A stretch of 36,286 nt of DNA, taken from contig JAFWZX010000014.1 of the NCBI GenBank assembly GCA_017517275.1, positions 1 through 36,286 of the forward strand, given 5' to 3'. The DNA is from Clostridia bacterium. GTDB lineage: Bacteria; Bacillota; Clostridia; UBA1212; UBA1255. Every line of letters begins with the position of its first letter. Position 1 is the stretch's first letter. The position numbers and the translations under genes are program-made. Positions 894 to 36,286 of the stretch are shown here, piece after piece. A model generated the notes under the pieces. That model saw only the letters and a program-made list of their open reading frames with translations. It made no database searches and was not told where the DNA came from.

Positions 894-3800
894 TCAATCA
901 AAAAGATCTGTTGACAGAGTCGTTCTTCCCACAGAGTCTGATACATTGCCGTCGCCTGTAATGGCGGCGGCATTTTTGCCCCATACTACGACGTTTCCTT
1001 TCGTATCAAGAGTAACACTAAACCAAGAACCAGCCGCAGCACTTACAATATCAGAGCTTATATAAGCAGGAGTACTTTGCGTATTTATGTTACTAAGACA
1101 AGCCTGACGGTATGTATTAAGTCCCACACCGTAGCACTTGTTGTCTATTGTTACTATCAAAGCATGTTCATCTTGCATGCTGACAGATTTTACGTTAGAC
1201 AGTAGTTTGTGCACCTTACCGTCCCCCTGGCCGGTAACGTACGTAGACGTGCTTCTCCAACCGATATAGTACAAATCATTGTTATTATCAATAATAAACG
1301 ATGAATGTTCCCCTGCAACAACCTTCTTTGCGTTGTCAAGTATTTTCACCGGAGTAGTTATTACTGATTCAGATGATGTGGACAATTTGTACCATCTGTT
1401 ATCACCTATTGCATATGCCTTTGAATCCCTAACAAAGATTGTATGTCTTCGACCCGCAGCCATAGACGTAACGTTGTCTGCGAGTTTTATAAACTTATTG
1501 ACAGAGCCACCCAGATTTGTAGTGCCAAGTTGACCGTTAGTATTATTGCCGATACCGTATAACTGGCCATTTTCAAAGAGAATCAAGGAGTGGTCGTGTC
1601 CTGCGCTGATGCCGACAACCTTTGAGTTGACAGCCGGTAAGTCAACAGGCAGCAAAGCAAAAGCATCCGAATTACGTCCAAGCTGTCCGTTACTATTATT
1701 ACCAAAAGAATATACCGTGCCGTCATGTGTAAGTATAAGTGTATGCGGCGCAGCACCTACGTTCCCGCCCTGTGACGTCGCTACGTCTAAGACGTTAGTT
1801 GCGATCAACGAGGCCTTCAAGACAGATGACGTTACGCAGGCGCACTGCCTTTGAGTATTATCTCCCCAGGCATATAAATTGCCGTTTTCCGTCAGATAGA
1901 AAATCGTCGATGAAGCTGCAACTACCTTTGGTGTTGTGGAAACGTTCTTCTTAGCAAGAACTGTAACCGTAGTTCTGCTTTTCACAGATAATTCCAACTT
2001 ATTTCCGCTGAATATCTTTTGAGATCCGTCAGCATAAGTAACTGCAAAACCTGTGAAAATATATCCGGATTTTACTGTAGCTTCAATTGTAACAGTTTCA
2101 TTTTTACCGCACTCTTTCGTATAGCCGCCGGGAACACTACTTCCGTTCATTTTAACAGAGACGTTTTCAGACTGATAATTAATTGTAATTTCGTTTGCGG
2201 TTATGTTGAGAGACGAAACCAAAAACTCTTTTATGTATTGTTTTCTGTTACGTACAAAGCCGCGCATTTCTTCAACTTCAGAGTTAAACTTTGATACAGA
2301 AGTTCCTAAGGTAGGCCATCTTTGCGCATTAAGACTGATGCCCGCAGCCCTTTGAGCCTGCATAGAATCTATAAGTTCAATCATCTCGCTCTCGACGTAA
2401 TAATTGTCCATTACGTATATAAATCTGTCATAGAACTTCATTTTAAAGGCCTCATTGTTAAGACATGCTTTAAAAAGCCTTATGATAATAGCATCTGAAT
2501 TAAGTGCGTTCAAAACTGTATTTGCCGTATAATTGTTTGCACAGCCAAAATCAAGATCTAACAGAACAAATCTCCATTTCGTATCAAAGCCACTGGGATC
2601 TTTCGGATTTTTATTTCTCCATACTTTTACGTTATTGCCCGGCCAGTCGCCATTACTGAAATACATGTTAACAATAAAATAATCTATCATGTTATCAATA
2701 TCAACCTTGGAAGCAACGTGATCAAAATACGTCTGGTTTGCCAGGTTATGGCTCTGGGCATAGCTTACCAATTCCTCCCAATCCTTCTGGTCGCCTTCTA
2801 CTCCTTCATTTACTTCAAAAGGATGTGAATTAGTACCTGTAACTAACGGGCTGGGAGCTTCAAGCATAGCAATATTCTCTTCTAAAATACCGTAATGAGC
2901 ATTAAAATATTTGTCATCGTAACGCTCGCGAGCGTTATACATTCCCCAACACTCGCCGTTAACAAATACAAGTATAGGTCGCGACTCCATATAATCTACG
3001 TTAAGAGGTTCACTGACTTTTTGCATAAAAGCATCACGAAACATAGTCTCCGCACAGTCATTTCCGGAATTGCGTAATAAAATCCTGTCAAATGAATCTA
3101 TAACTCTTCCTGTAGAATCTTTAACGTTACCATTGAAAATATCATATTTAAGTTTGCCGGGATTATTTGTAACTGAAGGGTTCGCATCTTTCTTAAAATA
3201 CAACCTCATGGATTTCATACTATTGCCCAATGAGCCGTTGCCACTCATGCAGAGCTCTACGTATTGTCCGGACTGTTTCACACCCTTCTCGTCAAACATT
3301 TCTACGTGAGCAACAATACGTTCTTTTTTTGCAAACGGGTGCTGCATTACAGTTACGTAAATACCTGTTTTTGTAGTAAAGTCTTCTTTCTTAGTTGTTA
3401 TAGACACAAACGGCATATTGTACGTGGACGTTAATTTTGAACCTACGTAATACGTATTTGTAACAACCGGTGTGGGGATACCATTTTTTACAGCTACTGC
3501 TTTAATTGACGTACCTACTATCTGAGCACTTGGATTTACATATCCTAAGGCTGACGTTGTAGCAGTAGTCAGAGGTCCGGGTTTTTTGTTTGTGCTTGCT
3601 TTTATTTGAATCGGTGCAGTGTAGGTAATACGAGTTTTACTTGTTTGAGGATCTGTACCGTCTGTCGTATAGTAAATGCTGTATCCCGGATTTGCGCTTA
3701 GAGTTAATTCAAAGGCATCAGTATACACACCGCCTTCCTTAGAGAAAGTAACCTTTGGACTGCTGTCAGCCGGCTTCTCAGTAGGAGTTGGTGTTGGCGT

Positions 3801-4133
3801 AGGAGTTGGCGTAGGAGTTGGCGTAGAAGTTGGCGAAGGAGTCGGCTTAGGCGTTGGCGTAGGGGACACCGTCGAATCAGGTGTAGTTGTTCCCGTAGGA
3901 TTAGCCGTTGCATCAGGAGTTGCCGTTATCGTAGGAGTCTGTGTTCCATCAATATTCTCTGTCATTCCGGGCGAACTCTCCGCTGTCTTTCCCGGAATCG
4001 ACGCAGTGCTTTGAGGACCGCTTTGTGTAGCAATCGGGGTCTTTTGTATATTGTCCTCCGTGTTGCAACTTACAAGCACTGCCACAAATAAAAGTAAAAT
4101 AACAAATCCTATAATAAAAGCATTCTTTTTCAT
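894..4133 (-). CDS. Large CotH-kinase lipoprotein with chitobiase-type, repeat and RCC1 propeller domains
   Basis: The 1079-residue protein begins with a lipoprotein signal (lipobox LVSC, Cys23). A Thr/Pro-rich stalk runs to about residue 125. Residues about 128-228 resemble the chitobiase/beta-hexosaminidase C-terminal domain (YSIYYTTDGTDPQTS). Residues about 240-630 resemble the CotH kinase domain: MKSMRLYFKK, ILLRNSGNDCAETMFRDAFMQ, VFVNGECWGMYNARERYD and the D-x-D element FVLLDLDFG, where family members bind ATP and metal. A short beta-rich repeat module follows (about 650-735). Seven RCC1-like repeats then fill the C-terminus (for example HTLILTHDGTVYSFGNNSNGQLG), enough for one seven-bladed propeller. 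The ATG has a GAGGT ribosome site. I infer an anchored surface protein; whether the kinase fold is active, and on what substrate, is unknown. Confidence 0.85.
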   Translation of the reverse strand: MKKNAFIIGFVILLLFVAVLVSCNTEDNIQKTPIATQSGPQSTASIPGKTAESSPGMTENIDGTQTPTITATPDATANPTGTTTPDSTVSPTPTPKPTPSPTSTPTPTPTPTPTPTPTEKPADSSPKVTFSKEGGVYTDAFELTLSANPGYSIYYTTDGTDPQTSKTRITYTAPIQIKASTNKKPGPLTTATTSALGYVNPSAQIVGTSIKAVAVKNGIPTPVVTNTYYVGSKLTSTYNMPFVSITTKKEDFTTKTGIYVTVMQHPFAKKERIVAHVEMFDEKGVKQSGQYVELCMSGNGSLGNSMKSMRLYFKKDANPSVTNNPGKLKYDIFNGNVKDSTGRVIDSFDRILLRNSGNDCAETMFRDAFMQKVSEPLNVDYMESRPILVFVNGECWGMYNARERYDDKYFNAHYGILEENIAMLEAPSPLVTGTNSHPFEVNEGVEGDQKDWEELVSYAQSHNLANQTYFDHVASKVDIDNMIDYFIVNMYFSNGDWPGNNVKVWRNKNPKDPSGFDTKWRFVLLDLDFGCANNYTANTVLNALNSDAIIIRLFKACLNNEAFKMKFYDRFIYVMDNYYVESEMIELIDSMQAQRAAGISLNAQRWPTLGTSVSKFNSEVEEMRGFVRNRKQYIKEFLVSSLNITANEITINYQSENVSVKMNGSSVPGGYTKECGKNETVTIEATVKSGYIFTGFAVTYADGSQKIFSGNKLELSVKSRTTVTVLAKKNVSTTPKVVAASSTIFYLTENGNLYAWGDNTQRQCACVTSSVLKASLIATNVLDVATSQGGNVGAAPHTLILTHDGTVYSFGNNSNGQLGRNSDAFALLPVDLPAVNSKVVGISAGHDHSLILFENGQLYGIGNNTNGQLGTTNLGGSVNKFIKLADNVTSMAAGRRHTIFVRDSKAYAIGDNRWYKLSTSSESVITTPVKILDNAKKVVAGEHSSFIIDNNNDLYYIGWRSTSTYVTGQGDGKVHKLLSNVKSVSMQDEHALIVTIDNKCYGVGLNTYRQACLSNINTQSTPAYISSDIVSAAAGSWFSVTLDTKGNVVVWGKNAAAITGDGNVSDSVGRTTLSTDLFD
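3777..3870 (-). repeat. Short tandem repeats encoding the Thr/Pro stalk of the CotH protein
   Basis: Twelve-base units of the type GGCGTAGGAGTT (plus-strand reading), with variants, recur in tandem and encode alternating Thr-Pro in the lipoprotein stalk. The reverse frame gives a long Gly-Val shadow open frame that is not a gene. Such repeats often vary in copy number, which would change stalk length. Confidence 0.8.
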
Positions 4134-34516: not shown

Positions 34517-34756
34517 AAGAAACGACCTCTCTAAAAACATATCCCCGCCATTGTAATAAAAAGGAAATGGCATGTCAATAATACCAATACTGCGCAGAAA
34601 TACAAAGGTATATCTGTCTACCGTCCTTTTAACATATTCATTTCAATATGTTTCGGGTGCTTAGCGATTTACCGCAATTTAAATACTGAACAACAGAACT
34701 ACAGTCATAGTTGAACGTTGCACTATCCAGGCATATTTTCTCTCCTTTCTTCATTC

Positions 34757-36010
34757 TCACATATCCAAACTATCCGCATTCAGTAGGAAATCGTATACGC
34801 TGATGACAAGAATTCCATCATCGGTATACCAAGGGGCCGGTGTGTCTTTGACAACGATGATCTTCTTAAAGTTATCATCGATGCGAAGCAGAGAATTGGA
34901 CTCCTGCTGCATTTTTGCGTCATCGGGAACGGCGAATGCAGACTGGACATAGTAGCGCTTGGAACCCTTATTGCACACAAAATCCACTTCCAGCTGCTTG
35001 CGGGTGATTTTGCCAGATCCATCATCATCTCGAACGCATACCAGTCCAACATCCACATTGAAATCTCTGCCGACCAATTCGTTGAAGATGATATTCTCCA
35101 TAGTGTGGTTTTCTTCGATCTGCCGGAAGTTGATTCTGGCGTTACGGAGGCCCACATCACTAAAATAGTACTTCTGCGGAGTGTCGATGTATTTTCTGCC
35201 TTTTATGTCATAGCGGGTTGCCCGGCTGACGATAAAGGCATCACACAGATAATCCAGATAGCTCTTTACAGTGTTAACGCTGATCTTCTTGTTCTTTTTG
35301 GTCTTAAAGGTATCTGACAACTTCTTAGGATTGGTCAGCGATCCAATACCAGAGGACAGGATATTGATCAATTCTTCAAATTCGTCCTTGTTGCGGATTC
35401 TGTGCCGCCCCACAATGTCATTGACATAGGTTTCATCAAACAGCCGCTTCAGCAGTTCGATTTTCTGTTCAGGAGTAGGCAGAAGCACCACAGAAGGCAG
35501 ACCGCCGTACAGCACATATTCCTTCCAGCCATCGTACTTGTTTCCTTCATAGACAGACATAAACTCCGCAAAGGAAAGGGGATTCATATGCAGTTCGTCC
35601 CCTCTGCCACGAAACTCGGTAATAATGTCTTTAGAAAGAAATTTAGCGTTACTGCCAGTGACATATACATCTGCATTAGGAATGCGCATAAATCCATTCA
35701 GCACAGATTCAAATTCCTCCAAAAGTTGCACTTCGTCCAACAAAATATAGTACTTTTGGTCATCAACAATCTTTTCTTTCACATAAGGATACAGCACTTC
35801 CGGATCTCTTAACTTTTTATTCTCATAGGAGTCAAATGCAATCTCAATAATGTGATCCTCAGGCACACCGCTCTCGATCAGATGCTTTTTAAAAATAAAA
35901 AAAAGCAAATAGGATTTACCACAACGGCGCATACCGGTAATGACCTTTATCAAACCATTGTGTTTTTTTGTTATCAATTTATTCAGATAATAATCACGCT
36001 TAATTTCCAT
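34757..36010 (-). CDS. AAA ATPase with DUF4143 domain
   Basis: The 417-residue protein has an AAA_14-type ATPase domain with Walker A VITGMRRCGKSYLL near residue 22, Walker B YYILLDEVQLLEEFE near residue 90, a sensor segment (DVYVTGSNAKFLS) and RGRGDELHMNPLSFAEF. A winged-helix-like middle follows, then the DUF4143 C-terminal domain with LEVDFVCNKGSKRYYVQSAF, which resembles a PD-(D/E)xK nuclease-like core. The start at 36010 has AGAGGTG seven bases upstream. Proteins of this kind are widespread in anaerobes and often strain-specific, with no settled function. The coding DNA has no ACGT tetranucleotide and lies next to a group II intron, so horizontal gain is likely. Four TATTGAAA boxes surround its promoter. 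Confidence 0.88.
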   Translation of the reverse strand: MEIKRDYYLNKLITKKHNGLIKVITGMRRCGKSYLLFFIFKKHLIESGVPEDHIIEIAFDSYENKKLRDPEVLYPYVKEKIVDDQKYYILLDEVQLLEEFESVLNGFMRIPNADVYVTGSNAKFLSKDIITEFRGRGDELHMNPLSFAEFMSVYEGNKYDGWKEYVLYGGLPSVVLLPTPEQKIELLKRLFDETYVNDIVGRHRIRNKDEFEELINILSSGIGSLTNPKKLSDTFKTKKNKKISVNTVKSYLDYLCDAFIVSRATRYDIKGRKYIDTPQKYYFSDVGLRNARINFRQIEENHTMENIIFNELVGRDFNVDVGLVCVRDDDGSGKITRKQLEVDFVCNKGSKRYYVQSAFAVPDDAKMQQESNSLLRIDDNFKKIIVVKDTPAPWYTDDGILVISVYDFLLNADSLDM

Positions 36011-36022
36011 TTCAATCACCTC

Positions 36023-36137
36023 TATTGAAAATTTATGGTTACTCCGCACGTTATTTTCAATATTATTATACCCATCAACAAAGGTTAAGTCAATAGATAT
36101 TGAAAAAAACATGTAGTTATACCATTGAGTTTCAATA
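36023..36137. repeat. Four TATTGAAA boxes in alternating orientation around the ATPase promoter
   Basis: Boxes lie at 36023-36030 (plus), 36055-36062 (minus), 36098-36105 (plus) and 36130-36137 (minus). The first pair extends to perfect 10-bp arms (TATTGAAAAT). Within each pair the boxes are 32 bases apart. One pair lies after and one before the promoter, which sits in the gap. Confidence 0.7.
36065..36093 (-). promoter_or_regulatory. Promoter of the ATPase gene
   Basis: On the minus strand TTGACT and a consensus TATAAT are separated by 17 bases, about 55 bases before the start codon, between the two pairs of TATTGAAA boxes. Confidence 0.85.
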
Positions 36138-36147
36138 GAACAAATTA

Positions 36148-36286
36148 ATCGAGTAGGAGGGATTTTTCCCTCCTCTCACACCACCGGGCATGCCGTTCGG
36201 CACCGGGCGGTTCAATTCAAATAATAATCTGTACAACTTTGGAGTCCTCGTCTTGCGAGGATTTCTTTTGATATGAGGTGGAGTCC
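36148..36286 (-). mobile_element. 3' end of a bacterial group II intron (continues beyond the window)
   Basis: Read on the minus strand, the reverse-transcriptase tail is followed by GAACCGCCCGGTGCCGAAC, GGTGGTGTGAGAGG, a GGAGGGA/TCCCTCC hairpin (36156-36173) and the ending CTACTCGAT. This order matches the domain V/VI end of bacterial group II introns, and an A seven bases before the end could be the branch point. The 5' part and the rest of the maturase lie outside. The element sits upstream of the ATPase promoter, so it need not disrupt that gene. Confidence 0.75.
36212..36286 (-). CDS. C-terminal tail of a group II intron reverse transcriptase/maturase
   Basis: On the minus strand the frame open from the window edge reads GLHLISKEILARRGLQSCTD followed by YYLN and a stop at 36212. 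This is the kind of C-terminus seen in group II intron-encoded proteins (LASRGL-S-DYYL). Only 24 residues are visible, so the class and the completeness of the enzyme cannot be judged. The stop lies directly before the intron's domain V-like RNA, as expected. Confidence 0.7.
   Translation of the reverse strand, partial: GLHLISKEILARRGLQSCTDYYLN

What the first reader, a model, noticed from the sequence alone, without database searches (positions are those of the whole stretch)
36023..36137. Symmetrical array of four alternating TATTGAAA boxes around a consensus promoter of a mobile-looking ATPase gene
Two inverted pairs, each with 32-base internal spacing, flank a promoter with a perfect -10 box. 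The layout suggests a cooperative operator that could loop out or silence the promoter. The nearest candidate regulator is the AAA/DUF4143 ATPase itself, a family without a clear function, or a product lost with the intron insertion on the far side.
Basis: partly seen in the sequence, partly recalled or inferred. Interest (0 to 1): 0.6.

Follow-up and report, generated by a model that had tools for sequence, protein, structure and literature searches.

The report
Private palindromes flanking an ATPase promoter
A very common but unexplained bacterial ATPase gene carries its own private 40-base palindrome on each side of its promoter, most likely the switch by which the protein turns its own gene down, and the layout recurs across the gene family although the palindrome's letters differ from copy to copy.

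Summary
The four TATTGAAA boxes are real. They are the ends of two 40-bp inverted-repeat units (36023-36062, 36098-36137), the only perfect TATTGAAA-N24-TTTCAATA sites in this genome. The units bracket a consensus minus-strand promoter (TTGACT-17-TATAAT) of an AAA_14/DUF4143 ATPase gene, PADLOC family PDC-S01.

The layout recurs. In 46 of 100 homologues a direct repeat across the promoter exceeds the 99% shuffle level (about 1 expected), 41 of them 71-77 bp apart; 8 of 35 viral-contig homologues do so too. The letters differ between homologues and between paralogues, and strong copies lay only at such genes in most host genomes searched. Unit plus gene move horizontally: 96% protein identity to a genome whose TrmL is 57% identical.

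Best explanation: each palindrome is the private binding site of its ATPase, which has a predicted winged helix, used as a two-site autoregulatory operator. Binding and repression are inferred; a coevolution test was negative. Main rival: ends or target of a mobile cassette, supported by one site where promoter and gene are absent and a single palindrome remains.

The parts
36098..36137 (-). Unit 1: 40-bp inverted-repeat unit upstream of the -35 (boxes 36098+ and 36130-), 4 bp from the -35
   Evidence: equivalent unit in homologues
36088..36093 (-). -35 hexamer TTGACT
   Evidence: sequence; same place in homologues
36065..36070 (-). -10 hexamer TATAAT, spacer 17 bp
   Evidence: sequence
36023..36062 (-). 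Unit 2: 40-bp inverted-repeat unit between the -10 and the Shine-Dalgarno (boxes 36023+ and 36055-), 2 bp from the -10, 75 bp from unit 1
   Evidence: equivalent unit in homologues
36017..36022 (-). Shine-Dalgarno GAGGTG, abutting unit 2
   Evidence: sequence
34757..36010 (-). AAA_14/DUF4143 ATPase gene (417 aa), PADLOC PDC-S01; model: AAA core, lid, winged helix about 208-283, PD-(D/E)XK-like domain about 300-410
36148..36212 (-). 3' end of a group II intron, outside the cassette; contig ends at 36286
   Evidence: 36.8 bits, below the gathering score of 40; E = 6e-5

Best explanation
The array is a two-site autoregulatory operator that travels with the DUF4143 ATPase gene. Each 40-bp palindrome is a private binding site of the ATPase encoded next to it. 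One site abuts the -35, the other covers the region from just after the -10 to the ribosome-binding site. The sites lie about seven helical turns apart, so on the same face of the DNA, and an ATPase oligomer could occupy or bridge both and shut the promoter until it is engaged elsewhere or changes nucleotide state. Shown: units, promoter, spacing, recurrence in homologues, gene-specific letters, rarity elsewhere, horizontal transfer of units with the gene. Inferred: that the ATPase is the binding protein, that it uses its winged helix, that the effect is repression, and that the two sites act together.
For: Units bracket a consensus promoter. Direct repeats across the promoter above the 99% shuffle level in 46 of 100 homologues, offsets 71-77 bp in 41 of these; 8 of 35 in viral contigs. 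Inverted-repeat score of at least 10 in 50% of upstream regions against 11% of control intergenic regions, Mann-Whitney p about 1e-10, not corrected for relatedness. Relatives of about 35% identity have a shorter palindrome at or over the -35 or just upstream of the -10. The second DUF4143 gene of this genome shares TTTACCATTTTTGAAA...TTGAAAATGGTAA over its -35 with a sister-species gene, while another paralogue there has CTTCCCAAAATC...GATTTTGGGAAG: one palindrome per gene. In L025 and L026 a base differs between species but is the same in both units of each. Exact matches of the searched palindromes lay only at these genes or a paralogue. Winged helix in a model with pLDDT 90.8; closest solved folds are archaeal AAA ATPases, with DNA-bound Orc1/Cdc6 also listed.
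Against: No binding data. Coevolution tests found no region of the protein, winged helix included, that tracks the palindrome better than the rest. Some loci carry a further copy outside any promoter, and one site keeps a palindrome without promoter and gene; a pure operator does not explain these. About half of the homologues show no significant second unit, and some no clear palindrome.
Confidence: 0.52

Rival explanations
1. The palindromes are ends or target sites of a mobile single-gene cassette: the ATPase, with its PD-(D/E)XK-like domain, recognises its own palindrome to move, insert or excise the gene. This is compatible with autoregulation at the same sites.
For: One presence/absence pair: L046 has unit, promoter, ATPase, inverted unit; the homologous place in a related genome (L123) has both flanks at about 90% identity, one unit, and no promoter or ATPase. 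Homology between distant genomes runs from unit 1 to the stop codon. Horizontal transfer. Extra copies after the stop in L033, L035, L046, L047, L067 and L085, beyond neighbouring genes in L028, upstream in L054 and L089.
Against: Most loci have no downstream copy. Units are placed relative to promoter elements rather than gene ends. Few copies per genome. The L123 state could be a plain deletion between repeated arms. No other empty site was found; no target-site duplication was seen.
Confidence: 0.3
2. Another host or phage regulator binds the palindromes, for instance as a sensor of infection.
For: Some defence islands are controlled by a dedicated repressor (RptR, PMC12255303).
Against: The palindrome differs from gene to gene, even between paralogues of one genome, and moves between lineages with the gene; a host regulator would impose a common site.
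Confidence: 0.08
3. RNA-level function: unit 2 forms a 5'-terminal hairpin in the mRNA, or unit 1 is a terminator that insulates the gene.
For: Unit 2 can fold as a hairpin, strongly in one homologue tested (-21.1 kcal/mol, z -6.3); some single palindromes look like bidirectional terminators.
Against: In the window the hairpin is weak (-8.0 kcal/mol, z -1.3). Unit 1 is upstream of the -35 and not transcribed from this promoter, yet is the same unit in many homologues.
Confidence: 0.06
4. Phase-variable inversion of the promoter between the palindromes.
For: Inverted copies of the box flank the promoter.
Against: The stronger promoter points at the gene in 88% of 101 homologues; the 4 scored the other way are weak calls.
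Confidence: 0.02

Closest known systems
PDC-S01 phage-defence candidate (PADLOC); AAA_14 + DUF4143
   Same: The gene matches the PDC-S01 models (E 2.6e-120) and Pfam AAA_14 and DUF4143. PDC-S01 is described as the fourth most common defence candidate in prokaryotes and as an ATPase fused to a PD-(D/E)XK-superfamily member (PMC12988326).
   Different: The passages read on PDC-S01 mention no palindrome and no regulation; validation is described as pending for most such candidates.
Self-repressing regulators of defence islands, e.g. RptR (PMC12255303)
   Same: Repressor binds repeated palindromes in its own promoter.
   Different: RptR is a small helical dimer on three 6-bp palindromes over the -10; here two 40-bp units bracket the promoter, letters change from gene to gene, and the presumed binder is an ATPase.
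Archaeal Orc1/Cdc6 initiators on origin boxes (own knowledge; folds 2qby, 2v1u)
   Same: AAA ATPase plus winged helix that binds repeated DNA boxes.
   Different: Replication initiators without the nuclease-like domain; resemblance of fold only.
Two-operator repression (lac, gal, lambda type; own knowledge)
   Same: Two similar sites on the same helical face on either side of a promoter.
   Different: Looping not tested; here the sites bracket the core promoter at only 75 bp.

Membership tests
PDC-S01 / AAA_14-DUF4143 ATPase | Matches AAA_14 and DUF4143 profiles above cut-off and the PDC-S01 models | tested here: met
PDC-S01 / AAA_14-DUF4143 ATPase | Protects against phage | not testable with these tools
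   candidate by genome context only; some plasmid relatives sit next to BREX genes
Autoregulatory operator | Sites placed on or around the gene's own core promoter | tested here: met
Autoregulatory operator | The gene product binds the sites | not testable with these tools
   winged helix predicted; coevolution tests without signal
Autoregulatory operator | Promoter output changes when the protein is removed | not testable with these tools
   needs an expression assay
Mobile element with defined ends | Copies of the end sequence at both boundaries | tested here: inconclusive
   downstream copy in a minority of loci
Mobile element with defined ends | Empty site with junction at the ends, or target-site duplication | tested here: inconclusive
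   one presence/absence pair with its junction at the unit, none other found
Group II intron (neighbour, not part of the array) | Rfam Intron_gpII match at the gathering score | tested here: not met
   36.8 bits against 40, E = 6e-5, full model length; only the 3' end is on the contig

The most novel reading that the evidence does not exclude
The private palindrome is the recognition site of a self-mobilising ATPase-nuclease gene: each cassette carries its own site, uses it both to regulate itself and to move, and changes specificity as it diverges. One of the commonest putative defence genes would then be a new kind of minimal mobile element.
Probability: 0.2. Interest if true: 0.85.

Novelty: new variant of a known kind. 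Interest (0 to 1): 0.6.

Why it matters
PDC-S01 genes are among the most abundant unexplained genes of bacteria and archaea (29,494 bacterial and 9,986 archaeal detections in PMC12988326). A private palindrome beside each gene gives a ready substrate for binding, cleavage and expression tests, and so a way to ask what this ATPase recognises. It also suggests that regulation travels with the gene through horizontal transfer, with a different site for each paralogue in a cell.

Tried and rejected
Coevolution of palindrome and protein: windows and single columns by domain gave no localised signal; palindrome similarity is almost gone below about 60% protein identity, so the test has little power. 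Scattered-repeat idea: not supported; the first Bacilli pattern was one base too long in its centre and was rerun. Family-level search of the consensus found nothing within 3 mismatches, which fits the cassette being absent from close relatives. Empty-site searches: L028 flank no usable relative; L085 flank none; all fetched loci against each other gave only L046/L123; relatives of the L046 right flank have other sequences upstream and no such palindrome; the window's own downstream flank has only a partial relative, not examined further. Promoter inversion: no sign. Literature: DUF4143 occurs in one unrelated paper. Solved structures: no sequence-level hit; fold searches cover mainly residues 1-297, so the nuclease-like domain was not tested by fold.

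Full report
1. Observation. The four TATTGAAA boxes are exact and at the stated places. Read as pairs they are the ends of two 40-bp units, TATTGAAAATTTATGGTTACTCCGCACGTTATTTTCAATA (36023-36062) and TATTGAAAAAAACATGTAGTTATACCATTGAGTTTCAATA (36098-36137). These are the only two perfect TATTGAAA-N24-TTTCAATA sites in the 1.59-Mb genome (about 80% complete); with three mismatches allowed the count is close to the reversed-pattern control, 49 against 41. On the minus strand the order is unit 1, 4 bp, TTGACT, 17 bp, TATAAT, 2 bp, unit 2, GAGGTG, 6 bp, ATG at 36010.

2. The gene. The product has AAA_14 and DUF4143 domains and matches the PADLOC PDC-S01 models. AlphaFold2 on an alignment of 71 relatives gives pLDDT 90.8: an AAA core, a helical lid, helices 208-220, 228-239 and 245-257 followed by strands 261-268 and 273-283 (a winged-helix arrangement, my reading of the secondary structure), and a mixed domain from about 300 that fits the PD-(D/E)XK superfamily named for PDC-S01 (PMC12988326), with invariant E311, D343 and Q356. 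The closest solved folds for residues 1-294 are the archaeal AAA ATPases 2qen and 2fna (Z 17.2, rmsd 3.3 over 258 residues; Z 16.9, rmsd 3.7 over 261), with DNA-bound Orc1/Cdc6 also listed. A shared fold shows no function.

3. Homologues. 80 loci from genome contigs and more from relatives were compared. The upstream regions show the same plan with different letters: CATTGAGCAAAAGTGTCCCAAAGTACATTTTTGATCAATAG twice in L025, CATTTTATAAAACCGCCCATTTGGGCGTAAATGTAAAATG twice in L055, and in L113 a nearly perfect 40-bp palindrome twice. Many Bacilli loci have a single palindrome abutting the -35, such as TCTATTCCAAAAAAACTCCACAGTGGAGTTTTTTTGGAATAGA in L070. Direct repeats across the promoter exceed the 99% shuffle level in 46 of 100 upstream regions, 41 of them at offsets of 71-77 bp. 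Eight of 35 distinct viral-contig homologues exceed the same level, five of them at 75-78 bp. Half of the upstream regions score at least 10 for an inverted repeat, against 11% of control intergenic regions and 2.4% of shuffles. The sequences are related, so these figures overstate independence.

4. One palindrome per gene. In the host genomes searched, exact matches lay at the DUF4143 gene or at a DUF4143 paralogue; weaker single matches elsewhere did not lie by such a gene, and one of those turned out to be the empty site of point 6. This genome has a second, 37%-identical DUF4143 gene whose -35 lies in a different palindrome, shared with a sister species; a further paralogue in that sister species has a third. 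Listeria relatives have the 26-bp palindrome ATTATTTGAAGTTAACTTCAAATAAT or a near copy just upstream of the -10.

5. Transfer. The window protein is 96% identical to homologues in L011 and L034, with 88% DNA identity between L011 and the window over a block from unit 1 to just after the stop codon and none detected beyond. TrmL from the window is only 57% identical in the L011 genome but 94% in the sister species G001, whose best DUF4143 match is 36%. The cassette therefore moved between lineages with its units. Many source records are metagenome bins, so single taxon labels are not relied on.

6. Extra copies and an empty site. A further unit lies after the stop codon in L033, L035, L046, L047, L067 and L085, beyond two small genes in L028, and upstream in L054 and L089. 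For L046 a related genome has the same two flanks at about 90% identity with a single unit and no promoter or ATPase between them (L123). The single unit matches the left unit of L046 through its right edge and is then followed by the right flank within a few bases. In L046 the right unit is in inverted orientation. The direction (insertion next to a pre-existing palindrome, or loss leaving one) is not settled: more distant relatives have other sequences upstream of this flank and no such palindrome. This is one pair only.

7. Mechanism. Placement on the core promoter, constant spacing, gene-specific letters and co-transfer favour an autoregulatory operator bound by the encoded ATPase. Which protein binds, and that it represses, are inferences. 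Tests for coevolution between palindrome and protein gave no signal and have little power. RNA folding does not explain the untranscribed unit 1 and promoter inversion is not seen. The mobile-cassette reading is the main rival and does not exclude autoregulation at the same sites.

8. Known work. A full-text search for DUF4143 returned one unrelated paper; PDC-S01 appears in three, two of which were read at the relevant passages and treat it as a defence candidate without a mechanism. I did not see this promoter layout described within the open-licence library searched.

Noticed in passing
window 36148-36286: 3' end of a group II intron, 10 bp upstream of unit 1; the contig ends inside the intron, so what lay beyond is unknown.
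   Followed up: partly
window 34700-34756: Right after the ATPase stop there is a Shine-Dalgarno-like stretch and ATGCCTGGATAG, a three-codon remnant; L012 has a longer ORF there and L034 a similar stretch, as if a second gene once followed.
   Followed up: no
L123 1495-1545 against L046 975-2369: Empty site: single palindrome, no promoter or ATPase, between flanks that in L046 enclose the cassette.
   Followed up: yes
L028 3752-4790: ATPase followed by an XRE-like gene and a 152-aa gene, then a third near-identical unit in the intergenic space beyond.
   Followed up: partly
L085 3770-5600: Copies of the palindrome downstream of the gene; the first downstream copy shares about 30 bp of left flank with the upstream one, suggesting duplication.
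   Followed up: partly
L089 2170-2445; L054 1270-2120: A second copy of the palindrome upstream of the ATPase unit, with a terminator-like stretch or a small membrane-protein gene between the copies.
   Followed up: no
L162, L163: Acinetobacter plasmid relatives (about 31% identity) lie just before BREX genes.
   Followed up: no
window 894-4133: 1079-aa ORF with a proline/threonine-rich stretch and a repeat-like C-terminal half, probably a surface protein; not examined.
   Followed up: no
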